A DNA stretch of 64,000 nt from Diadophis punctatus similis. Taxonomy: Eukaryota; Chordata; Lepidosauria; Squamata; Dipsadidae. How positions within the stretch are numbered: position 1 is the stretch's first letter; each line of letters opens with the position of its first letter. The notes under the pieces are model-generated. The model was not told the origin of the DNA. It saw only the letters and a list, made by a program, of their open reading frames with translations, and did not search any database. Below, in pieces: positions 5,352-33,022 of this stretch. The position numbers and the translations under genes are program-made. The stretch is taken from the NCBI GenBank assembly GCA_023053685.1, contig JALIGW010000016.1, forward strand, positions 15,042,973 to 15,106,972. The letters are read 5' to 3'.

Positions 5352-5523
5352 CTCTTGACCTTTCTGATCTAATTTGCTTTGGGCACTTGCTAACTCTTGA
5401 TCCCGGATAGTCATTCTTGCTTCCAATCCCTGCATCCTCTTTTCCCATTCCAGTTTCTTCTTGTTTACCATTATGTCGATCTGGTGCATTAGTTGTTGAA
5501 GTTCAGCATCACAAGGGATAGAT
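5352..5523 (-). CDS. DEUP1: DEUP1 coding exon (deuterosome assembly protein 1), second coding exon
   Basis: DEUP1 is a coiled-coil paralogue of CEP63 that builds the deuterosome, the platform for mass centriole production in multiciliated cells. This 172-base exon encodes 'DAELQQLMHQIDIMV' followed by a coiled-coil-type stretch ending 'SKLDQKGQE'. These closely match the N-terminal region of DEUP1 as I know it; the 'LDQKGQE' end favours DEUP1 over CEP63. The acceptor 'ttgcttttag' and donor 'GAG|gtaatg' give one spare base at the start and a codon boundary at the end, fitting the upstream exon at 18784. Conservation continues to the splice sites and breaks off at them. A longer open frame (5202-5546) simply reads into both introns. 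Downstream exons are not in the window. Confidence 0.85.
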
Positions 5524-5667
5524 CTAAAAGCAACCATTCGTTTCATTCTTTAAAGCAAATTCAAACATGTAGAGAACCCGCATTTTATCTGGAAAATGAC
5601 AACTCTCCCTCTTCATTATTCTGTCTTTTTGTTTTGGACTTTGGAAAAGTTCTGCAAGGGAAGAATA

Positions 5668-6061
5668 CAGGTAGTCCTTGACTTACAATAGTTCATTTAG
5701 TGACCAAAGTTATAACAGCCCTAGAAAAAGTGACTTATATGGCCATTTTGCACAGTTACAACTTTTGCAGCACCCCCAGGGTCGTGCGATGAAAATTCAG
5801 AGGGTTGACAACTGGTTCACATTTATGACGATTGCTGTGTTCCAGGGTCATGTGATCCTCTTTTGTGACCTTCTAACAAGCAAAGACTATGGCGAAACCA
5901 GATTCACTTAACAGCTGTGTTACTAACTTAACAACTGCCGTGTTTCACTGAACAACTGTGGCAAGAAATGTTGTAAAATGGGGCAAAACTCACTTAACTA
6001 ATGTCTTACTAAACAACAGAACTTTGGGGTTCAATTGTGATCGTATGTTGAGGACTACCTG
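5668..6061 (-). mobile_element. Tg MITE
   Basis: Full length, 394 bp, TA on the left side and CA on the right. Termini CAGGTAGTCCTTGACTTAC and AGGACTACCTG. Lies about 145 bases upstream of the DEUP1 exon on its transcribed strand. Confidence 0.8.
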
Positions 6062-6452
6062 CATTTAGACACTGCTCATTTGCAAACTAAGACACTCAAG
6101 ACGATGTGTTCAGATTAAGCTTTTGGGTGCCACTGACTAAGTCAAACAAAAGTAAATATTGTAACTTGTTCACCAAGGGATCATCCGCCCAGCTGCGTCG
6201 CCTGGCTGCAAAATGCACCCCTTACTTTTTGCCACGTCCTCAAAATGGATCCTCCACCTTGTAGCTACATGAACGGGAAATGCCAAGATACTACTACAAA
6301 CTAATTTGCTAATAACTTTGATTTTGTTTCCCAACATACTTGAGAGAAAGTCACGCACAGATCAGCTAAACTAACCTACTTCTGAATTGCCTAGAATTGG
6401 GTTGAGCACCAAGAAACATTGCAGGTACAATTTAAATCGAATTTAAACTCTA
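6062..6452. other. no recognisable feature
   Basis: Intron 1 DNA of DEUP1 without detectable repeats, genes or motifs. Confidence 0.5.
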
Positions 6453-7079
6453 TGGGTAATTCTCGACTTATGACCCATTGCTTAACGACTATCTGAAGTT
6501 ATGACAGATTCAAAAAGAAGGTTACTTATGACCCAGCCTCAAAGTTACAACTGCCATACCACTTTTATGGTCAAGAGCCGAGGTGGCGCAGCGGTTAGAG
6601 GCAGGTACTGCAGGCCACTTTAGCTGACACTGATCCGCAGGTCAGCGGTTCAAATCTCACCGGCTCAAGGTTGACTCAGCCTTCCATCCTTCCGAGGTAG
6701 GTAAAATGAGGACCCAGATTGTTGGGGGCAATATAAATATACATTGCTTACTAGTGTAAACCGCTTAGAGAGTGCTTGCACTGTGAGGCGGTATATAAAT
6801 TTCACAAAATAAATAAATAAATAAATAAATTTGGCAATCAGCTCGCATTTATAACTGGTTGCAGCATTCCACAGTCACATGGCAAAAAATACCCATTGGA
6901 TAAACTGAATTCGGACTTATGTCCATGCGATTCGCTTAACAACTGCAGGACTCACTTAATGACCATCATAAAAATAGTTGTAAAATCAAGTCTGGTCAAA
7001 TAGTGACTCAACCCATGACCGCAAAGACTTATGACTAAAATCCTGAGCTCAATTGTAGTTGTAAGTCGAGGGCTTTGTG
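6453..7079 (-). mobile_element. diverged Tg-like MITE hosting a SINE-A
   Basis: The left end (6453-6573) and right end (6831-7079) together form a Tg relative flanked by TA; the SINE at 6574-6830 splits it. More diverged than the 31927 or 55196 copies. Confidence 0.65.
6574..6830 (+). mobile_element. SINE-A, (AAAT)n-tailed variant
   Basis: Intact A-box (GGTGGCGCAGCGGTTAG) and B-box (GGTTCAAATCTC). The tail is (AAAT)n instead of (CTATTG)n, like the copy at 35836. Inserted in a Tg-like element. Confidence 0.85.
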
Positions 7080-7564
7080 TAATAGGCCAAGGTTGTCCTT
7101 TTGACAGGAAAATAAATAAATAATCCCAAACTTCAGGGAGTCTCTTCTTGATGATGTACTATCCTACCATTTACACTAAAGCTTTTGAAGTAGCCCAATT
7201 AGATAACAATTAAAAATGTTTTTCAACAAGATTCCTTTGATGGGGGGACGAGGGTAGATGATCAAACTGTAAACCTTTTCCTAATTGGCAAGTTTATGCG
7301 TGCCAGAGTGTTAAAAAAAAGAAAATTCCTTTTTCTTTGACCAGGTTTGGAAAGTAATTTCAGCAAGTAATGAGAGTCAATTTAAAAAGCCCCTCCCTAA
7401 TGAAAAGTAGTTAGCCCCATCGTGGCTCCATAGCCTAATAAATGGAATCTTAAATTTGTCAGTATCAATTCAAGCCTTATAGTGCTAATTAACAAGCTGA
7501 TTGGCTTTTGCACCTGTAATAGTGACACAATATGATTTGCTTATTTGTGGTTTTCTGTATAAAT
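7080..7564. other. no recognisable feature
   Basis: AT-rich intronic DNA. No repeat family recognised. Confidence 0.5.
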
Positions 7565-7572
7565 CTCTAGAA

Positions 7573-7743
7573 GAGTGTTTCTCAATCTCAGCAACTTGAA
7601 GAAGTGTGGACTTCCATTCCCGATGATTCTGTGTTGCGATGTGTTGCAAGGTTACCAAGGCGATTGAATGTGTTTTTAATGGAGGAAAAATACTGGGAGT
7701 TGAAATCCATGTATCTTAAAGTTGCTGAGGCTGAGAAACACTG
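7573..7743. mobile_element. hAT-I MITE, 171 bp
   Basis: Exact 8-bp duplication ctctagaa at 7565-7572 and 7744-7751. Termini 'gagtgtttctcaatctc' and 'gaggctgagaaacactg'. The right duplication also serves as the left duplication of the next element. Confidence 0.85.
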
Positions 7744-7751
7744 CTCTAGAA

Positions 7752-8122
7752 CCGTGATGGCGAACCTATGGCACGGGTGCCACAAGTGGCACGCAGAGCC
7801 ATATCGGTGGGCACGCGAGCTCAGGTCCGGCGTGCATGTCTGCACCAGCCGGCTGATTTTCGGGCCTTCTGGGCCCACTGGGAGTCGGGAAACAGGCCTC
7901 CAGAGGGGGTAGGGAAGGCCGTTTTCGCCCTCCCCAGGCTCCTAGAAAGGCTCTGGAGCCTGGGGAGAGCGAAAAATGGGCGTGCCATTGCATGCTGGGA
8001 GCAGGGGGGTCATGCGTGCATGTGCGGGGGTGCATGGAATTATGAGTGGGCACGCACACACGTGATCCCCCGCATTCCCCCCCCCTTTTGGCACGCGAAC
8101 CAAAAAAGGTTCGCCATCACTG
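7752..8122. mobile_element. hAT-I element, 371 bp
   Basis: Termini CCGTGATGGCGAACC and GGTTCGCCATCACTG, flanked by ctctagaa on both sides (7744-7751, 8123-8130). Same family as 53158-53590. GC-rich interior, no transposase. Confidence 0.85.
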
Positions 8123-8152
8123 CTCTAGAACCTCCTTAGATTCTCAAGTATA

Positions 8153-8693
8153 TGTTTTGACCCAGCTCCCCAAACATGACAAACCCTCTGAAGTGAACTC
8201 AAAGATTCCTTTAATTAGGAGCGCCAGCAGCCCCGGCAAAAAGTTTCTCTCTCAACACAGGCTAACAAGTCCTGCCGTCCGAAAGATGAAAAGTTGTCTG
8301 CCACATCTATTCATCTCCACCCCCTGCCTTTTATCGCCAGAGCTAGCGTGTGGCTTCGCTAGCAACGGTGGCTCTTCCTTCCCCAGGATCGGCCCACGGA
8401 TTTCCATTGCTCTCCTCTCCTCTGCCTTCTGTGCATCCCGCATCAGGCACTGGACCCAGCTGTTCCTCCTCTTCCTCATCAGCCACCTCCAGACCTGGAG
8501 GCTGTTGATGCTCCATCTGAGGGCTGACGGACGGCCCAGGCTCCGCCTCTGTCTCTCTCTCTCTGCCAGCTCCACTCCCTCTTCCCCCTTGGAGCTCTCA
8601 GGTTGCCTTGATGCTGACCCTGACTCCCACGCCTCCTCCTCCTCCTCCTCTGATTCGGCTGCTGGAGGCGCCAGCGGCCGACAGGCCACAACA
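8153..8693 (-). mobile_element. solo LTR, 541 bp
   Basis: On the minus strand it starts TGTTGTGGCC and ends GGTCAAAACA. It has a TATA-like 'gataaaagg' and flanking gtata on the left (8148-8152). On the right gtat (8694-8697) is followed, after removal of the copia insertion, by a (13302), restoring gtata. Open frames across it (for example 8046-8714) are by-products of GC-rich low-complexity sequence. Confidence 0.75.
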
Positions 8694-8697
8694 GTAT

Positions 8698-8961
8698 TGT
8701 TGGAATATTCATGACTGGGAGAGCCATGTGATTGAGTCAGCCAATCAGGCTGAAGTGTTATTTGAGCATGTCCAGAAACTTAGCAAGAAGAAGGGTGTGG
8801 TTTACTCTGTCCACCATTATACTCCAGTATGAAAACATCTCAACATGTGATGAAACAAAGTGTGGTATTGTAAATGTTTTATTCTACTTATAAAGAAGTT
8901 ATTTGAATCAGCAAAATGCAGTTATCTTTTGAAGCTTCTGATTTATTGCGTAACTCTGACA
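8698..8961 (+). repeat. copia 5' LTR
   Basis: 264 bp, TGTTGGAATATT start and CTGACA end. Differs from the 3' LTR only at the thirteenth base (c here, a in the 3' LTR). A possible TATA box TATAAAG lies at 8889-8895. Confidence 0.95.
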
Positions 8962-8975
8962 GGTTATGGGCCCAG
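8962..8975 (+). promoter_or_regulatory. primer-binding site for initiator-Met tRNA (internal, anticodon arm)
   Basis: GGTTATGGGCCCAG directly abuts the 5' LTR. It is the reverse complement of the anticodon stem-loop of vertebrate initiator tRNA-Met (CTGGGCCCATAACC), not of the tRNA 3' end. Priming by a half-tRNA cut in the anticodon arm is known for Drosophila copia. Match seen; use in this species inferred. Confidence 0.85.
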
Positions 8976-9076
8976 GAATCGCTCAAGAAGTAAAGTAAAA
9001 CTGCATTGTAATTTAAAGCTGATAAGAAGCTGTCTGTGTTGTTAAAGGAACAGGCAGAGAAGAAAAATAAAGCAGG

Positions 9077-10048
9077 ATGGCTGCTGCTATGGAATTTAAA
9101 GATAGTCCAATACCTAAATTGGGGAAGAAAAATTATTTAATTTGGGCTGCAAAAATGGAATGTTTTTTGAAAGCAAAAGAATTATGGGACATCGTAGCAG
9201 ACCCCCCACAAGTGCTTGGAGCAGCAGATCAAAAGGCTCATGACAAAGCTATGGCTTATCTTCTGTTAAGTCTGGGGGATGATCAATTCTTAAATGTAGC
9301 TGAATTAAAGTCTGCAAAAGAAATATGGCAGAAATTGAAAGCAGTACATGTCAATGTTTCTGCGTGTAATGTGGTCCAACTTTCGAGAAAGCTTTTCAGA
9401 ATGAGTTTGCAGACAGGAGATTCTATGGAAGATCATTTAATGAAAATGCAGTCTAATTTTCTAGAATTGGAGCAACGTGGAGTAAAGTTTCCAGAGTCCC
9501 AGAAAGTTTTATTAGTGTTAAATAGTTTGGATCAAAGCTGGGAGACTGTATCAGCTATTTTTGAAAGTAAGCCAGAAGCAGATTTGAATTTGGAGGCTTT
9601 GAAATCGTGTTTATTGAATGAATATGAGAAAAGGCTTTTCAGCCATGCTGATGGAAAATTCCACAGGCGGGGGCCCAACAAGGAGTACAGTGGAAACTTA
9701 CAGCAAGTCTCCAGCAAAATTTTCCACAGGCTGCCTATCTCTAGCAACAGCCGAGGTGTCTGCAGACAAGAGGAAAGCAGAGGCAGGAGAGATCAAGTTA
9801 CACAACAACAATTCTTCAAGCAAGTTAAAAAAGCATGTTTCATTTGTGGAGAGACAAATCATCTGCAGAAAAGCTGTGCACAGAGAAGAAATATGCAAGA
9901 CAAGAGACATTATTTGCAAGGACAGATTGCAGTTGCAAAAGTTTGTTATAATAACAATAGAGACAAATGGTTGATTGACAGTGGGGCTAGTCAAACAATT
10001 GTTAATAATTCTGACTTATTTTCCAGATTTTTTCCCAGGAAACAATGA
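9077..10048 (+). CDS. copia Gag plus start of protease
   Basis: 323 codons. The ATG has A at -3 and G at +4. Residues 1-40 ('NYLIWAAKMECFLKAKELWD') match the copia-type Gag N-terminal domain. A zinc knuckle C-x2-C-x4-H-x4-C spans residues 254-267. The aspartic protease active site D-S-G is at residues 301-303. The frame then stops at 10046-10048, a few codons later, while homology continues in the +1 frame. Gag forms the virus-like particle and binds RNA through the knuckle. The stop inside the protease is unusual and probably reflects an indel at the T-run 10028-10033 or a recoding site. Confidence 0.9.
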   Translation: MAAAMEFKDSPIPKLGKKNYLIWAAKMECFLKAKELWDIVADPPQVLGAADQKAHDKAMAYLLLSLGDDQFLNVAELKSAKEIWQKLKAVHVNVSACNVVQLSRKLFRMSLQTGDSMEDHLMKMQSNFLELEQRGVKFPESQKVLLVLNSLDQSWETVSAIFESKPEADLNLEALKSCLLNEYEKRLFSHADGKFHRRGPNKEYSGNLQQVSSKIFHRLPISSNSRGVCRQEESRGRRDQVTQQQFFKQVKKACFICGETNHLQKSCAQRRNMQDKRHYLQGQIAVAKVCYNNNRDKWLIDSGASQTIVNNSDLFSRFFPRKQ

Positions 10049-13046
10049 AGAAGTGGCCTTAGCCAATGGTCAAAAGGCTAAAATCATTGGAAGAGGCGAT
10101 GTGCAAATTCCATATTTGGACTCCAGGTTTACTGATGTGTTATGTGTACCTGAAATGGAGCATAATTTGTTAAGTGTGTCTAGTTTAGACAAGCAAGGTT
10201 ATGAAACCACATTTGTTAATGGGAAGTGTATCATCCAAAGAAATGGGAATGTTTGTGCACAGGGCATAAAAGAGGATAATCTTTATGTATTGCAGGGACA
10301 AAAGGTCCCACATTGTTCCCAGACATTTAAAAATGTAGCAGAACACAATTCGTGTGTTCATCTTCTGCACAGACGACTTGGTCATGCTAATTTTAAGGTT
10401 GTTCAACAAATGAAAGAATTTGCAGAAGGATTAGATTTGAAGGGATGTAAGGCATATTTGGATTGTGCAGTATGCAAAGCATCGAAATCCAAAGCATTCC
10501 CAGTTAGCAAGTTTAGCACAAGACAAACCAGAAAAGCTCTAGAACTGGTGCATGCTGATTTAATTGGGCCTATGCAAGCCAGTTTGGGAGGAGCAAAGTA
10601 TGCGCTGGTCATTGTGGATGACTACAGCAGGTTTGGGTTTTGCTACTTACTTAAGAGTAAAACAGAGGTGCTACAGCAATTTAAGCAATGGTTAAGTTTT
10701 GTAGAGAGAAGGTACAAACAACAGGTATGTCAGTTGCAAACTGACAGAGGTTCTGAGTTTATGTCAACAAATTTTCAACAATGGTTGAGACAATTGGGAA
10801 TAAGACACAGGCGCACAAATCCTTACACACCGGGAGAGAACGGAGTGGCTGAAAAGAGGAATGGTGTTTTGCAAACAATGAAAGACTCATTACTGGAGGA
10901 TTCTGGTATGAGCAGGTCATATTGGGGTGAAGCCATACTGACTGCCAATTATTTAGTAAATAGGTTGTGGTGTTCATCCATCAATAATACTCCATATGCA
11001 ATGCTATATGGGAGAAAGCCTTCTCTAGCACATTTAAAAATATTTGGAAGTACTGCATGGGTACATATTCCAAAGGCAATCAGAAGAAAGGGACAACAAA
11101 AGGCTAGAAAGCTCAGATTTGTGGGCTATGAGCCAGGCTCAAAAGGGTATCGCTTTAGTGATGGAAGTAAAAGGATAGTGATTTCAAGGTCTGCTAGTTT
11201 TGCAGAACAAAATTGGAACAGAATTGATGCAAATTCTGAAAATGATCCACTTAGTGACGGTGATCCACTTAGTGACAATAACTCATTTAATGATGGTGAA
11301 TCATTTACTGAAGGTGTCTATGTTCAGGGAGGAGAGTCTGAACAAGATATGAAGATAGAAAAGCTTGAAACACAAGTACAGGCAATGCCACGTAGGTCAG
11401 AGCGTAGGAACAGAGGGGTTCCGCCAGACAGGTATTCTGCCAGTAAAGTTAAAGTGTGTAATGTGTGGTATGAGCCAAGAAACTATAAGGAAGTATTGGC
11501 ATTACCAAAAGTTGAACAAGAAAAGTGGAAGGAAGCCATGGATAAAGAGATGAAATCCATGGGAGATCATGAAGTGTTCACATCTGTGACTTTGCCACAG
11601 GGTACGAAAGCTGTAGGATGTAAGTGGGTATATAAGAAAAAGGTATTACCCAATAATGAAGTACAGTATAAGGCAAGATTGGTGGCACAAGGTTTTTCTC
11701 AATTAAAGAATGTGCACTATGATGAGGTGTTCGCGCCAACTGTAAAAGGTGAGAGCATAAGACTAGCACTGGCATTAGCATCAGCATACAGGCATAGAAT
11801 TTGGCATTTTGATATAACCACTGCATTTCTCAATGCTGAATTAGAGGAAGAAATTTATATGGTTCAAGCGCCAGGGTATGAAAATAAAAAGCCTAACATG
11901 GTGTATAAATTGAACAAGGCCATTTATGGGCTGAAGCAGTCAGCCAGAAATTGGAATATCTGTTTAGATACTGCATTGAAAGGTCTTGGGTTCAAGAGTT
12001 GCAAAGCTGATGGTTGCATATACACTGGAAAGTTACAAGGTGGGAATTGTCTACTATTAGCATTTGTGGATGATCTTTGTTTCATTGCAAAGGATGCATC
12101 ACAAGTTAAAGAATTTGCTAATAAGTTAGAAAAGAAATTTGAATTAAAGAATTTGGGAGAAATAAAGAATTATCTCGGTGTAGAAATACAAAAAACTGAA
12201 AAAGGTGGTTATATTCTCAGTCAAAGGAGAAAAATTGAACAATTATTAGAGAAATATAACATGAAAGATTGTAATATTGCTCCTACACCTATGAGCACAG
12301 ATTTTTACAATAGTTTGGGTGAGGATAAAAGTGAAGCCTGTGATCAGGAGATATATCACTCTGCAATAGGGAGTCTGTTATATCTGTCACAGTGGTCCAG
12401 ACCAGACATAGCTTGTGCAGTGAGCATCTTAAGTCGCTTTACTGCTACACCTACAAAGTTGCATTGGATGGGTGTGAAAAGAATTCTCAGGTATTTGAAG
12501 GGAACTGTGAATTTGGGTCTTCAAATACAGGTCACTGAAGAATTAAAATTGAAATGTTATGTTGATAGTGATTATGCAAATGATGTAAAAACCAGAAAGT
12601 CTAATTCTGGAATTGTAATAATGTTTGGAGGGGCTTTAATTGGTTGGAAGTCCAGAAAACAAACAACGGCTGCTATTTCAACTGCTGAAGCAGAGTTTAT
12701 TGCATTGTCTGAGTTATGTTCTGAAGTAGTTTGGTATGTACAGTTGTTACAAGATTTAAATGTAAATGTAAATGAAGCTGTAACTGTTTATGAAGATAAT
12801 GCTGCTTGTATAAAAATGGCAACAGGTGACAGAGTGAAGAACAGAAGTAAACATGTGGACATTAAGTATTGTAATGTCAGGGAAGCTGTAAAAGAAAAAT
12901 TAATAAGTTTACATCATTGTTCTTCAGAGGATAATTTAGCAGACATGATGACCAAACCATTGGGTAATGTGAATCATGGGAAATGTTTAAATCCAATAGG
13001 TTTGATGTCTCTCCCAGTAATGAAGGGAGGAGTGTTGGAATATTAA
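9975..13046 (+). CDS. copia Pol: rest of protease, integrase, reverse transcriptase, RNase H
   Basis: Open frame of 1023 codons; genuine coding starts near 10035, where it takes over from the Gag frame. Domains by frame residue: pre-integrase zinc region with 'LHRRLGH' and C-x2-C near 125-165; integrase catalytic triad D195, D257, E293 (35 residues between the last two, the expected DD35E spacing); reverse transcriptase with the catalytic FVDD at 697-700; RNase H with 'YVDSDYA' near 862-868, then 'STAEAEF' and 'HVDIKY' blocks. All catalytic residues are present. A short tandem acidic repeat ('DPLSDGDPLSD') lies between integrase and reverse transcriptase. The stop lies just inside the 3' LTR. 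Confidence 0.92.
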   Translation: MTVGLVKQLLIILTYFPDFFPGNNEEVALANGQKAKIIGRGDVQIPYLDSRFTDVLCVPEMEHNLLSVSSLDKQGYETTFVNGKCIIQRNGNVCAQGIKEDNLYVLQGQKVPHCSQTFKNVAEHNSCVHLLHRRLGHANFKVVQQMKEFAEGLDLKGCKAYLDCAVCKASKSKAFPVSKFSTRQTRKALELVHADLIGPMQASLGGAKYALVIVDDYSRFGFCYLLKSKTEVLQQFKQWLSFVERRYKQQVCQLQTDRGSEFMSTNFQQWLRQLGIRHRRTNPYTPGENGVAEKRNGVLQTMKDSLLEDSGMSRSYWGEAILTANYLVNRLWCSSINNTPYAMLYGRKPSLAHLKIFGSTAWVHIPKAIRRKGQQKARKLRFVGYEPGSKGYRFSDGSKRIVISRSASFAEQNWNRIDANSENDPLSDGDPLSDNNSFNDGESFTEGVYVQGGESEQDMKIEKLETQVQAMPRRSERRNRGVPPDRYSASKVKVCNVWYEPRNYKEVLALPKVEQEKWKEAMDKEMKSMGDHEVFTSVTLPQGTKAVGCKWVYKKKVLPNNEVQYKARLVAQGFSQLKNVHYDEVFAPTVKGESIRLALALASAYRHRIWHFDITTAFLNAELEEEIYMVQAPGYENKKPNMVYKLNKAIYGLKQSARNWNICLDTALKGLGFKSCKADGCIYTGKLQGGNCLLLAFVDDLCFIAKDASQVKEFANKLEKKFELKNLGEIKNYLGVEIQKTEKGGYILSQRRKIEQLLEKYNMKDCNIAPTPMSTDFYNSLGEDKSEACDQEIYHSAIGSLLYLSQWSRPDIACAVSILSRFTATPTKLHWMGVKRILRYLKGTVNLGLQIQVTEELKLKCYVDSDYANDVKTRKSNSGIVIMFGGALIGWKSRKQTTAAISTAEAEFIALSELCSEVVWYVQLLQDLNVNVNEAVTVYEDNAACIKMATGDRVKNRSKHVDIKYCNVREAVKEKLISLHHCSSEDNLADMMTKPLGNVNHGKCLNPIGLMSLPVMKGGVLEY
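13019..13032 (+). promoter_or_regulatory. polypurine tract
   Basis: Purine run 'gaagggaggag' immediately before the 3' LTR, the expected plus-strand primer for reverse transcription. Confidence 0.85.
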
Positions 13047-13296
13047 TGACTGGGAGAGCCATGTGATTGAGTCAGCCAATCAGGCTGAAGTGTTATTTGA
13101 GCATGTCCAGAAACTTAGCAAGAAGAAGGGTGTGGTTTACTCTGTCCACCATTATACTCCAGTATGAAAACATCTCAACATGTGATGAAACAAAGTGTGG
13201 TATTGTAAATGTTTTATTCTACTTATAAAGAAGTTATTTGAATCAGCAAAATGCAGTTATCTTTTGAAGCTTCTGATTTATTGCGTAACTCTGACA
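13033..13296 (+). repeat. copia 3' LTR
   Basis: 264 bp, followed by the agtat target duplication at 13297-13301. Confidence 0.95.
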
Positions 13297-13330
13297 AGTA
13301 TATTCAAAATCTAAAGAAGTTTTGAAATGT

Positions 13331-13702
13331 CAGGTAGTCCTCAACTTGCAGCTATTCATTTAGTGAACATTCGAAGTTATAACGGCACTGAAAAAAGTGC
13401 CTAATGACTATTTTTCACACTTACAACCGTTGAAGCATTCCCATGGCCATATGATCAAAATTCAGATGCTAGGCAACAGGTTCACATTTATGACGGTTGC
13501 AGTGTCGTGGGATCCCCTTCTGACAAGCAAAGTCAATAGGGAAGCCGGATTCACTTCACAGAGGTGATACTAACTTGACAACTGCAGCAATTCAACAGTG
13601 GCAAGAATGGTCGTAAAATGAAGGAAAACTCACTTAACAACTCTCTTGCTTAGCAATAGAAATTTTGGGCTCAGTCGTGGTCGTTAAGTCGAGGACTACC
13701 TG
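13331..13702 (-). mobile_element. Tg MITE
   Basis: Ends CAGGTAGTCCTCAACTTGC and GTCGAGGACTACCTG. TA on the right; the left TA is mutated. Confidence 0.8.
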
Positions 13703-14497
13703 TACAGTGTCCTAGATCCACAGCTAAAATTAGATCAACACCTTACAGCTGTGGCTAGGGGGGCTTTTGCACAGGTTCGCCTGGTGCACCAATTGCGACC
13801 ATACTTGGAGAAGGAGGTTCTACTCACGGTCACTCATGCCCTTGTCACCTCCCGATTGGACTACTGCAATGTGCTCTACATGGGGCTACCCTTGAAGAGT
13901 ATTCGGAGTCTTCAACTGGTGCAGAATGCGGCTGCGCGTGCTGTGGTGGGTGTGTCAAGATACACCCACGTAACACCCATACTCCGCCAGCTGCATTGGC
14001 TGCCCATTGGTCTCTGGGTACAATTCAAGGTGTTGATCATCATCTTTAAAGCCCTACATGGCTTAGGACCAGGCTATCTCCGGGACTGCATTCTGCCTCA
14101 TACTTCCCTTCGACCGGTCAGGTCCCACAGAGTGGGTCTCTTCCAGGTCCCGTCAGCCAAACAATGTCGACTGGCGGGGCCTAGGGGGAGGGCCTTCTCT
14201 GTAGGGGCCCCTGCTCTCTGGAACCAACTTCCCCCAGAGATCCGAATTATCCCCACCTTGCTGGCCTTCCGAAAAGCCATTAAGACATGGCTCTTCCTGC
14301 AGGCGGGGTGATTTTGAGACAACCTTACACCTGATGTCTCCCCCATGTATGTATGGTATTATATGTTTTTTTCTTAATTGCTTTTAAATTGTTTTTAAAT
14401 GATTTGTTTGGTTGTTTCCTAAAATGTTGTATTTCCTCCGAGTCCTTAGGGAGTAGGGCGGCATAGAAGAACCTCCAAATAAATAAATAAATAAATA
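13703..14497 (+). mobile_element. L2-like LINE, 3' end with ORF2 C-terminus
   Basis: A 186-codon frame (13751-14311) encodes the reverse-transcriptase thumb and C-terminal part of an L2-type LINE: 'LVTSRLDYCNVLY', 'LQLVQNAAARAV', 'LHWLPI', 'FKALHGLGPGYL', 'RAFSVGAPALWNQLPPEIR'. It ends with a 3' UTR and an (AAAT)n tail. 5' truncated, as usual for LINEs. The frame is still open, suggesting moderate age. Confidence 0.85.
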
Positions 14498-14989
14498 TTC
14501 TTACTGTCTACGTGCTATTTTTTTTTTTGCAAAGAGTATGGTAGGATTTTTTTTTTAATTTTCCAACTTATTGTGGCATTGTATATCCAGGTACTAATCA
14601 GATCGGCCCTTCTTAAGTTTCCAAATTCTATCCATATCTGCCAGATTCTGCCAATTTGTAAGGCTATTTAGAAATAAGCCTCACTAAAAAGTAATGGGCC
14701 ATTTCAAATCTAATGGGTCTTCCTTGCTAAACTGTTGCTTAGCTAGCCATGAAGAAGCAGTGAAAACATGTCATCCATCTATCACACCTTCATTTACAAG
14801 CCTCTCATTTAAACCAGAGTTTCCCATTACTCTTTTAATAGGGAGCGCTGGGATAATACTGGCTTACATACTGGAGTCATGCAAAAATATTGTGCTAAGC
14901 CATGGTTGGTATAACATTTCTCAATTGGTTGGGAACACATATAGAACATGCAATACAAAAAAGTAAACCAATTACTATATGGCTTGGAG
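14498..14989. other. unassigned, with an 'aagccatggttgg' dispersed repeat at 14859-14945
   Basis: Mostly featureless. Positions 14859-14945 recur inverted at 15906-15990, so this is an interspersed repeat of unknown class. Confidence 0.4.
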
Positions 14990-15063
14990 CAGTTCTTCCC
15001 AACTTTGGCAACTGTAAGACGCGTGGACCAACTCTCAGAATCCCCCAGCCAGCATTTATTCTG
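14990..15063. mobile_element. hAT-I MITE, left half
   Basis: Begins CAGTTCTTCCCAACTTTGG and stops close to the SINE at 15071. Confidence 0.55.
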
Positions 15064-15070
15064 GAAAAAG

Positions 15071-15290
15071 AGCCGAGGTGGCGCAGTGGTTAAAAGCAGC
15101 ACTGCAGTTCAGCAGTTCAGCTGTTCAAATCTCACCTGCTCAAGGTTGACTCAGCCTTCCATCCTTCTGAGGTCGGTAAAATGAGGACCCAGATTGTTGG
15201 GGCCAATATGCTGAAAACTCTGTAAACCGCTTAAAGAGGGCTGTAAAGCACTATGAAGCGGTATATAAGTCTAAGTGCTATTGCTATTGC
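15071..15290 (+). mobile_element. SINE-A
   Basis: Head GGTGGCGCAGTGG, body and (CTATTG)n tail present. About 20 bp shorter in the head than the 2 kb copy. Confidence 0.85.
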
Positions 15291-15497
15291 TAAAATAAAC
15301 CAGTTTTTCTGGTTCATCCAAATCAGCCATAATCTGTAAATTTTATTTATATTAATTAATCCCAACTACGCGATGGTGTGTAAATATGTTAAGTCATTCA
15401 AGGGGTTTTTGTAGACCCAGAGCAAGTTTTATTAATTAGTAATAAATTCCTGGGAGAGATATTTGTATTTCATATATTGTTGTGTAGTTGACTATCA

Positions 15498-15733
15498 AGA
15501 ACCGTGGTGGTGCAGTGGTTAGAATACAGTACTGCAGGCTACTTCTGCTGACTGCCAGCTGCCGGCAGTTCAAGTCTCACTGGCTCAAGTTGACTCAGCC
15601 TTCCATCCTTCCAAGGGTGGTAAAATGAGGACCCAGATTGTTGGGGGCAATATGTGACTCTGTAAACCGCTTAGAGAGGGCGGTAAAGCTCCAAAAAGCG
15701 GTATATAAGTCTAAGAGCTATTGCCATTGCTAT
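15498..15733 (+). mobile_element. SINE-A
   Basis: 'accgtggtggtgcagtgg' head variant, shared with the copy at 58497; tail CTATTGCCATTGCTAT. Confidence 0.85.
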
Positions 15734-15895
15734 CTGTCCCTGCAACATTCACCTTTCAACCTCATGTTCACCACTAAGGACAATCCAGTTTGTTAGCCAC
15801 CAGGACAGCAGCAAGACTCATACCCAGCTTATCACTCTACAAACAAGCCATTACTGTGCAGGTAATCCTCGACCACAACTGAGCCCCAAATTTTC

Positions 15896-15999
15896 AGTGT
15901 TGTGTGTTTTATATGTGTTCCCAGCCAATTGAGGTTCATTATACCAACCATGGCTTAGAATAATATTTTTGCATTATGCCAGTCAGTTGGCCAAATGTC
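15896..15999 (-). mobile_element. unclassified short repeat inserted in Tg
   Basis: Inverted relative of 14859-14945 ('ccaaccatggctta'). The boundaries are set by where the Tg consensus breaks and resumes. Confidence 0.45.
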
Positions 16000-16303
16000 T
16001 GTTGCTAAGCAAGACAGTTGTTAAGTGAGTTTTGCCTCATTTTACAACCTTTCTGGCCACAGTGGTTAAATGAATCACTGCAGTTGTTAAGTTAGAGTAG
16101 TAACGTGGCTATTAGGTGAATCTGGCTTCCCCACTGACTTTGTCAGAAAGTCGCAAAAGGTGATCATGTGATCCCGGCACACTGCAACTGTCATAAATAT
16201 GGACCAGTTGCCAAGCATCTGAATTTTGATCACATGACCATAGGGATGCTGCAATGGTCATAAGTGTGAAAAACAGTCATAAATAACTGTTTTCAGTGCC
16301 GTT

Positions 16304-16646
16304 CAGGGGTGGGTTCCTCCCAGTTCGGATCAGTTCGCCTGAACCGGTAGCGACCCGCTGGTGATGTCACGATGATGTCATCGAACCGGATTGGTCAGTG
16401 CCAGTCCGTGGGCGCTGCCATCTTTTTAATTTTTTTTAATTTTTAATTTTATTTTTTTTCCTTCTGAGCATGCGCAGAAGCCAAGTTCTGGCACTGTGCA
16501 TGCTGTCGCCATCTTTTTTTTGGCTTTGTATTTTATTATTATTTTTGGATTTTTCATTATTGCGTATGCGTGCGCAGCGCACGCGCGCACCCACGAGGCG
16601 CGCCCACGAGCAAACCAGCAGCGAGGTAAGTTGGAACCCACCCCTG
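16304..16646. mobile_element. hAT-II MITE, 343 bp
   Basis: Exact 8-bp duplication gtgccgtt (16296-16303, 16647-16654). Termini CAGGGGTGGGTTCC and GGAACCCACCCCTG. Contains 'accggtagcgacccgctgg' and a GCGCATGCG-rich half. Short GC/AT-rich frames inside are not genes. Confidence 0.9.
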
Positions 16647-16704
16647 GTGCCGTTGTAACTTTGAATGGTCACTAGACAAATGTTTGTAAGTTGAGGACTA
16701 CCTG

Positions 16705-18297
16705 TACATTGATATAACAAAGCTAGGATTTACCGTATGTTAAAGATCCCTAAAAAGGAAAGTTTGCAACAACTGTTGACACTTAATGCTGATAGAATAT
16801 TGAGCAGTTGATGCAAAGAAAAAAGAGCTATTAGCATAACAATGTTATGCCTATACACGTAAGACTTTAAACCAGAGGTGGTAAATTTGGATTATTCCAT
16901 GGAGGGACACAGATTTCTCTATTTCTACCTGACCAAAGATACCAAATCAGAGCCAGGAGAGAAAAAAAACACCCAATCTGACTCATCCAGCCATTTTTAT
17001 CTTCCTTACGGTGCATTTTTAATCAGCAATTCTTCCTCTTTATCCGATCTGCCCAAAAGACACTTTCAACAACTTTGAAAGAGCTACGGTTCTTTCTTTT
17101 TTTAGGCTGAATGCCATGTCATCATAGCTAAAAAAAATGCAGAGAACCAAAAAGGACCCCTTGTGTATCTCTTATAAAACTGTATTAATTAAAAAAGGGG
17201 GGTTAATAATTTGTATGATGCTTTTAAGGGCTCAGAGTGCTTTATGTGCATTAACCTGTTCTAGTTTTTGCATCGGTTTTTTTAAGGAAGGAAAGATGTA
17301 GCAGCAGAACCAGAAGTGGAGAAAGAAATTTGCGGGAAGGCATCCTAGGGACAAGATTTGAACCCAGTAGTGCCTGCACTATGTAACTCATTTTAAGATT
17401 AACTATACTACATCACTGCATTGGAGTGTTTCTGCACTTCATAGAAGACCCCAGTCAATTCCTTTCTGACCAGATATTTTGGGAAGCAGAGTTATTTCTA
17501 AAAGTAGCCGTAACAAATGATTCTTCCAATTGGACTTCAGTTGCCAGGATACCCCAGCAGACTGAGCCAATTGGGAAATTATAATAGTTGAAATTCACAC
17601 TATATGGGTGAGCATTACTTGAGGAGCTGATTAGTTTAGATACTAGTTTATATAACCCAATCTCTACAGATTAGAATCTAGTACCTAAGTGTTATTACCT
17701 GTTTCACACAATCTGACTGCTTTGCAGGAAACCATTACAAGACCTAGTGACCACATAAAGCCCTTATAAGCAGAAGTACACCGACACTGACATTCCCCCA
17801 ATTCTACTGAAGATGTTACCTAGCCTGGTAACAAAACGTTCGGAAACCAACCCACAAGCTCGGAGAACGAACCTCCACCCTCAGGAGACTATATGCTAAC
17901 TAAATTAATCATCCTCTAGTAGCCATCGATGCACTATTCACACACTGTCTGAATAGGCTACAGGTAAAATCCACCATCTGAATATTTTGAATAGTGCAAA
18001 ATGATTTTTTTAAAAAATAATAATGCATATACAATGTTTAATCATTGATGTATACGTGATAGCCTTGTTTTGTTTATATATATATATTTCCCTTTGTTTT
18101 GTTTATCAGTTGGTCTTTTCTTGCATTTGGGGTATTTTTGTGTATTTTGTTGCTTTTTAAAATATACTATATTTAATATACCATGTTTTTTGGAGCCTCC
18201 GACTGGCTCTCTGGATGGGCTGCAAGGTAAAATCGGCTGTCTGGAGAGGCTGCAAAGAAAAGCAGCCTGACTTCTGAATACGCTGTCAAGCAATGTT
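16705..18297. other. mostly single-copy DNA
   Basis: No gene or complete repeat recognised apart from a Penelope-like scrap at 17797-17875. Intronic to DEUP1. Confidence 0.5.
17797..17875 (+). mobile_element. Penelope-like 3' fragment
   Basis: 'gatgttacctagcctggtaa' followed by 'acgttcggaaacc' matches the 3' segment seen in both arms at 4617-4840. Confidence 0.45.
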
Positions 18298-18514
18298 TTA
18301 TTTTTATTTTATTTATTTATTTATTTGTCAAACATGTACAGGATAGTAGTTGTTTGTATAAACATAACATAAGTAAAAAGTACCGATAATAGAGGACAAT
18401 AGGACAGTAGGACAGGGACGATAGGCACAGTGGTGCGCTTAAGCACGCCCCTTACAGACCTCTTAGAAATGGGGAGAGGTTGACTGTAGACAGTCTAAGG
18501 TTAAAGTTTTGATC
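18298..18514 (-). mobile_element. non-LTR retrotransposon 3' end (same family as 224-772)
   Basis: (TTTA)n tail, then the same 3' UTR ('cacgccccttacagacctct') as the copy at 224-772. Confidence 0.65.
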
Positions 18515-18783
18515 TGAAGTTTCCTCTTTTCCATTGGACTCTCTAAAAAGATCAGAGAAGCTTGAAAAGATAAGCACCAGCTATGCCCTTCTAAAGAAGG
18601 GCTTTCTAAATGTGCCTTGCTATTTATCCATTCATTCGTTCAATGACTTTGTGCTAATCCTTATTAATCCAGTTTGTTGTTTCAATGAGGGAATTAAAAT
18701 TAGCCACCGTGCTCCAGGAGAAGCTCCAAAATTGCTCCCTGTCTGAAAAAAATGTCAAATCGCGGTCTGTCCTTCGACCTTAC

Positions 18784-18827
18784 CTAGCCATCATTTGTTC
18801 TTGCAGTCCCTCTATGGTCTTCTCCAT
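18784..18827 (-). CDS. DEUP1: DEUP1 first coding exon (start codon)
   Basis: On the minus strand, ATG at 18827-18825 in strong context (A at -3, G at +4) opens 14 codons (MEKTIEGLQEQMMA) plus two bases. They end at a good donor, AG|gtaagg. The two spare bases are completed by the single spare base of the exon at 5352-5523, giving 72 in-frame codons. A pyrimidine tract and acceptor 'tttgaaacag' lie just upstream, so the exon probably spans 18784-18845 with 18 bases of 5' UTR. The short N-terminus resembles the start of the paralogue CEP63 in form. Supported by phase, splice signals and the CpG island upstream, not by strong protein similarity. Confidence 0.65.
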
Positions 18828-32352: not shown

Positions 32353-33022
32353 CAGTAGTGGGATTCAATTTTTTTAACTACCGGTTCTGTGGGCGTGGCT
32401 TGGTGGGCGTGGCATGGCTTGGTAGGTGTGGCTTGGTGGGCATGGCGTGGCTTGGTGGGCGTAGCTTTGTGGGCGTATCAGGGGAAAGATACTGCAAAAT
32501 CTCCATTCCCACCCTACTCCAGGGGAAGGATACTGCAAAATCTCCATTCCCTCTGTACTCCAGGGGAAGGTTACTGCAAAATCTCCATTCCCACCCTACT
32601 CCAGGGGAAGGATACTGCAAAATCTCCATTCCTACCCCACTCCAGGGGAAGGATACTGCAAAATCTCCATTCCCTCCCCACTCTAGGGGAAGGATACTGC
32701 AAAATCTCCATTCCCTCCCCACTCCAGGGGAAGGATACTGCAAAATCTCCATTCCCTCCCCACTCCAGGGGAAGGATACTGCAAAATCTCCATTCCCTCC
32801 CCACTCCAGGGGAAGGATACTGCAAAATCTCCATTCCCTCCCCACTCCAGGGGAAGGTTACTGCAAAATCCCCATTTCCTCCTGATCAGCTGGGACTCGG
32901 GAGGCAGAGAATAGATGGCGGCGGGGTCAGTCAGAGGTGGTATTTACCGGTTCTCCGAACTACTCAAAATTTCCGCTACCGGTTCTCCAGAACTGGTCAG
33001 AAGCTGCTGAAACCCACCTGTG
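32353..33022. mobile_element. hAT-II element expanded by an internal minisatellite
   Basis: Exact 8-bp duplication atactgag (32345-32352, 33023-33030). The ends match the family of 25923-26124, but the interior holds ten units of a 41-bp repeat. Confidence 0.9.
32480..32883. repeat. 41-bp minisatellite, about 10 copies
   Basis: Units start at 32480, 32521, 32562, 32603, 32644, 32685, 32726, 32767, 32808 and 32849 (last partial). Period exactly 41, not a multiple of 3; ten units give long false frames on both strands. Confidence 0.95.

What the first reader, a model, noticed from the sequence alone, without database searches (positions are those of the whole stretch)
8698..13296. Very young, almost complete Ty1/copia element in a vertebrate
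The two 264-bp LTRs differ at one base, the agtat duplication is perfect and every catalytic motif of Pol is present. Copia elements are scarce in amniotes, so a recent insertion implies a lineage active now or recently. Its position in an intron suggests it may be polymorphic.
Basis: partly seen in the sequence, partly recalled or inferred. Interest (0 to 1): 0.8.

Follow-up and report, generated by a model that had tools for sequence, protein, structure and literature searches.

The report
Young copia retrotransposon in a snake
A recently inserted jumping gene of the copia type sits beside or within a snake gene and belongs to a family with hundreds of similar copies in the same genome, most of those sampled very young; active copia elements were already known in snakes, so it is a new member of a known kind.

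Summary
In detail: 8698-13296 is a complete Ty1/copia element, with 264-bp LTRs differing at 1 base, perfect AGTAT duplication, PBS, PPT, and all domains in copia order. It lies antisense in what is very probably the first coding intron of DEUP1 in a colubrid-type snake. This copy is broken: a one-base frameshift splits gag-pol in protease; 17 of 17 other copies examined are open there. In a positional sample of 20, 14 had both LTRs whole; 9 of 14 pairs were identical, 14 of 14 had perfect duplications. Of 142 RT matches scored (4,183 candidates), 97 lie in open frames of at least 1,310 codons. pN/pS between copies is 0.13-0.16: several functional lineages were active. The claimed surprise is weaker: copia is common in some snakes, and an active one causes corn-snake colour mutants. 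Present mobility and polymorphism are untested.

The parts
8693..8697 (.). target-site duplication AGTAT, left copy
8698..8961 (+). 5' LTR, 264 bp, TGTTGG...CTGACA
8962..8975 (+). primer-binding site GGTTATGGGCCCAG directly after the 5' LTR; complement of the anticodon arm of initiator tRNA-Met, as in Drosophila copia (tRNA match recalled, not tested)
   Evidence: same 14 bases after the LTR in 17 of 17 other full-length copies
9077..10048 (+). ORF of 323 codons: gag (PF14223, PF13961), zinc knuckle 9836-9877, start of protease with DSGA at 9977-9988
9975..13046 (+). pol ORF of 1023 codons in another frame: rest of protease, integrase, RT, RNase H
10344..10856 (+). integrase HHCC zinc finger and DDE core motifs
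11571..12296 (+). reverse transcriptase RVT_2 (PF07727), FVDD at 12063-12074
12558..12806 (+). RNase H catalytic motifs
13022..13032 (+). polypurine tract GAAGGGAGGAG directly before the 3' LTR
   Evidence: AATGAAGGGAGGAG before the 3' LTR in 17 of 17 other copies
13033..13296 (+). 3' LTR, 264 bp
13297..13301 (.). target-site duplication AGTAT, right copy
8153..8693 (.). older solo LTR of another element (TGTTTT...ACAACA) at whose right end the copia inserted; its own duplication GTATA (8148-8152) is restored in the empty site
5352..5523 (-). coding exon of host gene DEUP1 (second coding exon if the exon at 18784-18827 is used)
18784..18827 (-). probable first coding exon of DEUP1 (14 of 15 residues as in Notechis and Vipera, GT donor, matching phase); the element then lies antisense in the intron 5524-18783

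Best explanation
A young copy of a high-copy Ty1/copia LTR retrotransposon family of a colubrid-type snake. The family moves, like other copia elements, by copying its RNA into DNA and integrating with a 5-bp duplication (integration products shown, process inferred). It is presumably primed on the initiator tRNA-Met (inferred). Several sequence lineages of the family were active within roughly the last million years and kept their coding capacity under purifying selection; solo LTRs are a minority. The copy in the window jumped into the edge of an older solo LTR, very probably in the first coding intron of DEUP1, opposite to the gene. It later (or at insertion) suffered a frameshift in the protease region, so it is probably an inactive passenger itself.
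For: Anatomy. Host and intron: DEUP1 exon match to snakes, splice sites. Copy number: 940 matches to the 26-base 5' LTR-PBS junction with at most 1 mismatch, reversed control 0; 1,905 matches to the LTR end, control 0; 44 pairs and 12 unpaired among the first 100 LTR ends listed on one contig. Youth: 15 of 17 LTR pairs chosen by similarity to the window LTR identical, 17 of 17 perfect duplications; in a positional sample of 20, 14 had both LTRs whole, substitutions 0 in nine, 1 in four, 9 in one, 14 of 14 perfect duplications. Coding capacity: 142 of 4,183 candidate RT places scored, 141 of 142 without a stop in the RT piece, 97 of 142 in an open frame of at least 1,310 codons. Several lineages: LTRs differ by 3.1% on average between 20 copies but mostly not at all within a copy; pN/pS 0.16 in gag (17 copies) and 0.13 in RT (18 copies). 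Frameshift private: 17 of 17 others unbroken there. RT tree: sister to a Podarcis lilfordi copia, 48% identity, support 100/99.
Against: No expression, pedigree or population data, so 'active now' is not shown. LTR identity could be raised by gene conversion between LTRs. The first 17 pairs were picked by similarity to the window LTR, the sample of 20 by an exact 26-base junction on one contig, and the 142 RT places are the best-scored ones; all three favour young or window-like copies. In the sample of 20, 6 lacked two whole LTRs at the expected place (2 of these read N) and are not dated. 45 of 142 RT places lie in shorter frames. One of 17 gag pieces of other copies is out of frame. Solo LTRs are not negligible: up to 12 of 56 loci among the first 100 LTR ends. 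Three of the eight DEUP1 models printed, Pituophis among them, start at the downstream exon, which would put the element upstream of the coding region. A sequencing error cannot be excluded for the window frameshift.
Confidence: 0.92

Rival explanations
1. The family is the same as, or a subfamily of, the 5,832-bp corn-snake Copia (OCA2 and CLCN2 insertions), seen here in a shorter form.
For: The host DEUP1 exon is closest to Pituophis catenifer; among the snake genomes interrogated in that paper the corn-snake Copia was found only in Pantherophis and Pituophis. Order and rough spacing of RNase H, RT and integrase from the 3' end reported for that element resemble this one.
Against: Length 4,599 against 5,832 bp; 42 of 44 LTR-end pairs on one contig are 4,336-4,361 apart (the pairing script looked up to 4,600; the other two are 3,188 and 4,133), and no two of the 12 unpaired ends lie near 5.6 kb apart. 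The paper reports 85 copies above its length threshold, here 940 junctions.
Confidence: 0.2
2. The window copy is still autonomous, the two frames being joined by a programmed frameshift as in Ty1.
For: Both frames are open and overlap; Ty1 uses +1 frameshifting (recalled).
Against: 17 of 17 other copies are unbroken at that point, 97 of 142 scored places have a single long frame, and the shift lies inside protease, after its active site, not between gag and pol.
Confidence: 0.03
3. Recent arrival by horizontal transfer from an invertebrate or plant.
For: Extreme youth of most dated copies; the best phmmer score was a plant protein.
Against: The RT tree joins the element with a lizard copia at 100/99, apart from the named plant and arthropod rows; the plant hit is 35% identical, the lizard 48%. 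Only 1 named vertebrate row was among the 119 other rows and most rows are unnamed, so a transfer between reptiles, or from an unsampled source, is not excluded.
Confidence: 0.08

Closest known systems
Copia LTR retrotransposon of the corn snake (OCA2 amelanistic and CLCN2 stripe insertions; PMC4657000, PMC11948899, passages read)
   Same: Ty1/copia type, snake host of the same circle (Pantherophis/Pituophis), intronic insertions, near-identical copies
   Different: 5,832 bp and 85 copies over its threshold against 4,599 bp and 940 junctions here; sequences not compared
Copia of Podarcis lilfordi (protein P0002)
   Same: closest named relative in the RT tree, 100/99; gag, integrase and RVT_2 domains
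   Different: only 48% identity in RT
Recently expanded Copia of hydrophiine and sea snakes (PMC8872380, PMC10709897, passages read)
   Same: recent copia expansion in a snake, expression reported in four hydrophiines
   Different: elapids, families not resolved to sequence in what I read
Mtanga-like copia of tuatara and Mtanga/Hydra1.1/Zeco copia of frogs (PMC7116210, PMC4131045, passages read)
   Same: vertebrate Ty1/copia
   Different: clade assignment of the window element not tested against these

Membership tests
Ty1/copia LTR retrotransposon | two LTRs with TG...CA ends and a short target duplication | tested here: met
   17 of 17 and 14 of 14 other dated pairs with perfect 5-bp duplications
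Ty1/copia LTR retrotransposon | integrase before reverse transcriptase, order PR-INT-RT-RH | tested here: met
Ty1/copia LTR retrotransposon | copia-type gag and RVT_2 reverse transcriptase | tested here: met
   PF14223 2.2e-26, PF07727 3.7e-73
Ty1/copia LTR retrotransposon | primer site complementary to initiator tRNA-Met (common in the family, recalled) | tested here: inconclusive
   PBS GGTTATGGGCCCAG read; the tRNA complement is recalled, the tRNA gene was not searched
Ty1/copia LTR retrotransposon, autonomous copy | one gag-pol reading frame | tested here: not met
   the window copy is split, so I do not call it autonomous; the family meets it: 17 of 17 unbroken at that point, 97 of 142 with at least 1,310 open codons
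corn-snake Copia (5,832 bp) | high identity over more than 5 kb of the published insertion | not testable with these tools
   sequence only in a supplement; no look-ups allowed
endogenous retrovirus | env gene between pol and the 3' LTR | tested here: not met
   pol ORF runs to 13046, past the PPT and into the 3' LTR; no room for env
Mtanga or Hydra1.1 clade of copia | position in an RT tree with reference elements | not tested
   no named reference sequences of these clades among the hits

The most novel reading that the evidence does not exclude
A Ty1/copia family distinct from the published corn-snake element is mobilising today in a colubrid snake, from many co-active source copies rather than one master, with 97 open-frame copies among the 142 scored (by extrapolation hundreds in all) and solo LTRs only a minority: among the most prolific young LTR retrotransposons of any amniote, and a likely source of new mutations.
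Probability: 0.35. Interest if true: 0.6.

Novelty: new member of a known kind. Interest (0 to 1): 0.42.

Why it matters
Copia elements cause visible mutations in snakes, but which families are active, how many sources they have and how the host copes are open. A family with 940 junctions, solo LTRs in the minority and most scored copies still open is a good natural system for measuring insertion rate, polymorphism and silencing in a reptile by sequencing alone.

Tried and rejected
Horizontal transfer from plant or arthropod: judged less likely from the RT tree. Programmed frameshift: rejected. Recombination between copies: over half of shared-site pairs fail the four-gamete test in most comparisons, but incompatibility does not fall significantly with distance (63 sites, p = 0.14), so neither recombination nor recurrent mutation is shown. 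A hairpin from an imperfect inverted repeat around the PPT and 3' LTR start (13005-13024 / 13043-13062): folding of the window copy no better than shuffles (z -0.89); dropped. Viral contigs gave 1 weak match, 41% over 37 residues; genome contigs none; phages none. The gag homologue search gave 3 remote hits, 23-32% identical. Rfam 0 and tRNA 0 in the window. The empty-site search found none, which is uninformative for polymorphism. A search for the rest of DEUP1 in the genome (to name the host better) did not complete. Planned but not run or not answered: counts of the PPT-3' LTR junction, search for other copia families with the lizard RT, search for the initiator tRNA gene.
Full report
What was checked. 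LTRs at 8698-8961 and 13033-13296 are 264 bp each and differ at one base, 8710 C / 13045 A; AGTAT flanks both ends. A primer-binding site follows the 5' LTR and a polypurine tract precedes the 3' LTR. Two open frames cover the inside: 9077-10048 (gag and the start of protease) and 9975-13046 (rest of protease, integrase, RT, RNase H). Pfam names copia-type gag, integrase core, SH3-like domain and RVT_2, and the catalytic motifs are present in copia order.

Where it sits. A stretch at 5352-5523 on the minus strand is an exon of DEUP1 (Pfam CEP63 8e-21). The closest database protein is from the snake Pituophis catenifer annectens, 98% over the 60 residues scored; the one mismatch in the alignment lies beyond the splice donor read. 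In the list four elapids have 95%, a dipsadid 95%, Thamnophis 93%, vipers 88-90%. The Pituophis protein represents a cluster of 8 sequences, so the species is not fixed; a colubrid-type snake is the safe statement. A probable first coding exon, MEKTIEGLQEQMMAR, is at 18784-18827: 14 of 15 residues as in Notechis and in Vipera, weak E-values of 0.003-0.004 because it is short, but followed by a GT donor in matching phase. Of the eight DEUP1 models printed, five start with this exon and three (Pituophis, Pseudonaja, Erythrolamprus) start at the exon 5352-5523. If the exon is used, the element lies in the intron 5524-18783, antisense to the gene; otherwise it lies upstream of the coding region. 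The left flank is a solo LTR of another element, 8153-8693, with left duplication GTATA; removing the copia restores GTATA on the right. So the copia hit the very end of an older insertion.

The rest of the genome. The window's assembly is held (1.78 Gb, 419 contigs). The LTR as query gave 40 scored hits of 1,774 candidates, all 99-100% identical: 18 pairs about 4,350 bases apart, the window's among them, and 4 single LTRs. I fetched the 17 other pairs and the 4 singles. In 15 of 17 pairs the two LTRs are identical, in 2 they differ by one base; 17 of 17 have a perfect 5-bp duplication. These were chosen by similarity to the window LTR, so I also took a positional sample. The 26-base LTR-PBS junction, at most one mismatch, occurs 940 times, reversed control 0. 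From the first 100 places listed (all on one contig, all exact) I took 20, about every fifth; one place already sampled was replaced by its neighbour. Fourteen had two whole LTRs at the expected distance: nine identical, four with one substitution (one of these also a one-base gap), one with nine; 14 of 14 perfect duplications. The remaining six: two read N, two had no LTR there (one of them interrupted by a nested copy, from the positions), two had a partial LTR. The LTR end occurs 1,905 times, control 0. That is about twice 940, but as some copies lack a whole 3' LTR the excess hides an unknown number of solo LTRs; among the first 100 LTR ends listed, all exact, 44 pairs and 12 unpaired were found, two of the unpaired being the ends of one copy into which another copy inserted. 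Solo LTRs are thus a minority, not absent.

Ages. At the sea-snake rate of 4.71e-9 per site per year (methods passage of PMC10709897), the window copy dates to 0.40 My, range 0.01-2.24; the 18 similarity-picked copies pooled to 0.067 My (0.014-0.196); the 14 of the positional sample average 0.37 My, median 0, maximum 3.62. The rate belongs to another snake family, so these are rough.

Coding state and sources. With the RT piece as query, 142 of 4,183 candidates were scored, the best ones: all at 99-100% amino-acid identity over the full piece, 141 of 142 without a stop in it; 97 of 142 lie in an open frame of at least 1,310 codons, 45 in shorter ones, the window copy among the latter with 1,023. 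I single out none of them. At the point of the window's frameshift 17 of 17 other copies are unbroken. In gag pieces 17 of 18 copies, window included, have no stop; in RT pieces 18 of 18. Between the 18 copies mean divergence is 0.7% in the LTR, 1.6% in gag, 2.3% around protease and 1.3% in RT, far more than LTR pairs differ within copies; in the positional sample LTRs differ between copies by 3.1% on average. pN/pS is 0.16 in gag (17 copies; one out-of-frame row left out) and 0.13 in RT (18 copies). Hence most differences arose on lineages that still replicated by functional proteins, and several such lineages were active in the same recent period (inference). The window's 264-bp LTR type is a minority in the positional sample: 18 of 20 are 266 bp, one 265, one 264. 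Whether copies recombine is open.

Relatives. A search with the RT region gave 2,838 proteins, 120 listed. In a tree of the window and 119 of these 120 (one too short), the element pairs with a Podarcis lilfordi copia at 100/99, 48% identity. The lizard is the only named vertebrate among them and its branch is long, so the pairing speaks against a recent source in the named plants or arthropods but does not resolve the squamate history.

What was known. From passages read: an intronic 5,832-bp Copia in OCA2 is the likely cause of amelanism in the corn snake (PMC4657000); the same element, one base different, lies in CLCN2 in the stripe mutant, with 85 copies in that genome and copies only in Pantherophis and Pituophis among the snakes interrogated (PMC11948899). 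Copia is 0.47-1.65% of six elapid assemblies, expanded in hydrophiines and expressed (PMC8872380), and expanded in sea snakes (PMC10709897). Searches for copia with squamate, snake and lizard, Pantherophis, colubrid and snake genomes listed no paper that I recognised as describing a 4.6-kb family with 264-266-bp LTRs; most of those listed were seen as titles and abstract starts only, and most subscription papers are not in the library. So the kind of element and its activity in snakes are known; this family may or may not be the published one.

Verdict. A new, well-populated member of a known kind.

Noticed in passing
window 8148-8693: A solo LTR of another element (TGTTTT...ACAACA, 541 bp, duplication GTATA) into whose right edge the copia inserted.
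   Followed up: yes
window 5352-5523 and 18784-18827, minus strand: One sure and one probable coding exon of the deuterosome gene DEUP1, useful to identify the host as a snake; database models of snakes disagree on the first coding exon.
   Followed up: partly
G000:C1 79789246-79798245: A copy of the same copia family inserted into another copy in opposite orientation near its 5' LTR (from LTR-end positions).
   Followed up: no
G000:C1 156931562 and 156935911: Two PBS junctions on the same strand 4,349 bases apart, as in a tandem element sharing an LTR; the sampled one nevertheless has matching 5-bp flanks (row 14).
   Followed up: no
window 13005-13024 and 13043-13062: Imperfect 20-base inverted repeat around the PPT and start of the 3' LTR, present in the 17 other copies too; the fold is not better than shuffles.
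   Followed up: partly
18 copies, gag, protease and RT pieces: About half or more of shared-site pairs are incompatible by the four-gamete test with no significant decay over distance; unexplained.
   Followed up: partly
window 32479-32882: Minisatellite of about 10 copies of a 41-bp unit, 95% matches.
   Followed up: no
window 13688-14311: ORF of 207 codons that looks like the end of a LINE reverse-transcriptase protein (recalled resemblance); no Pfam match.
   Followed up: partly
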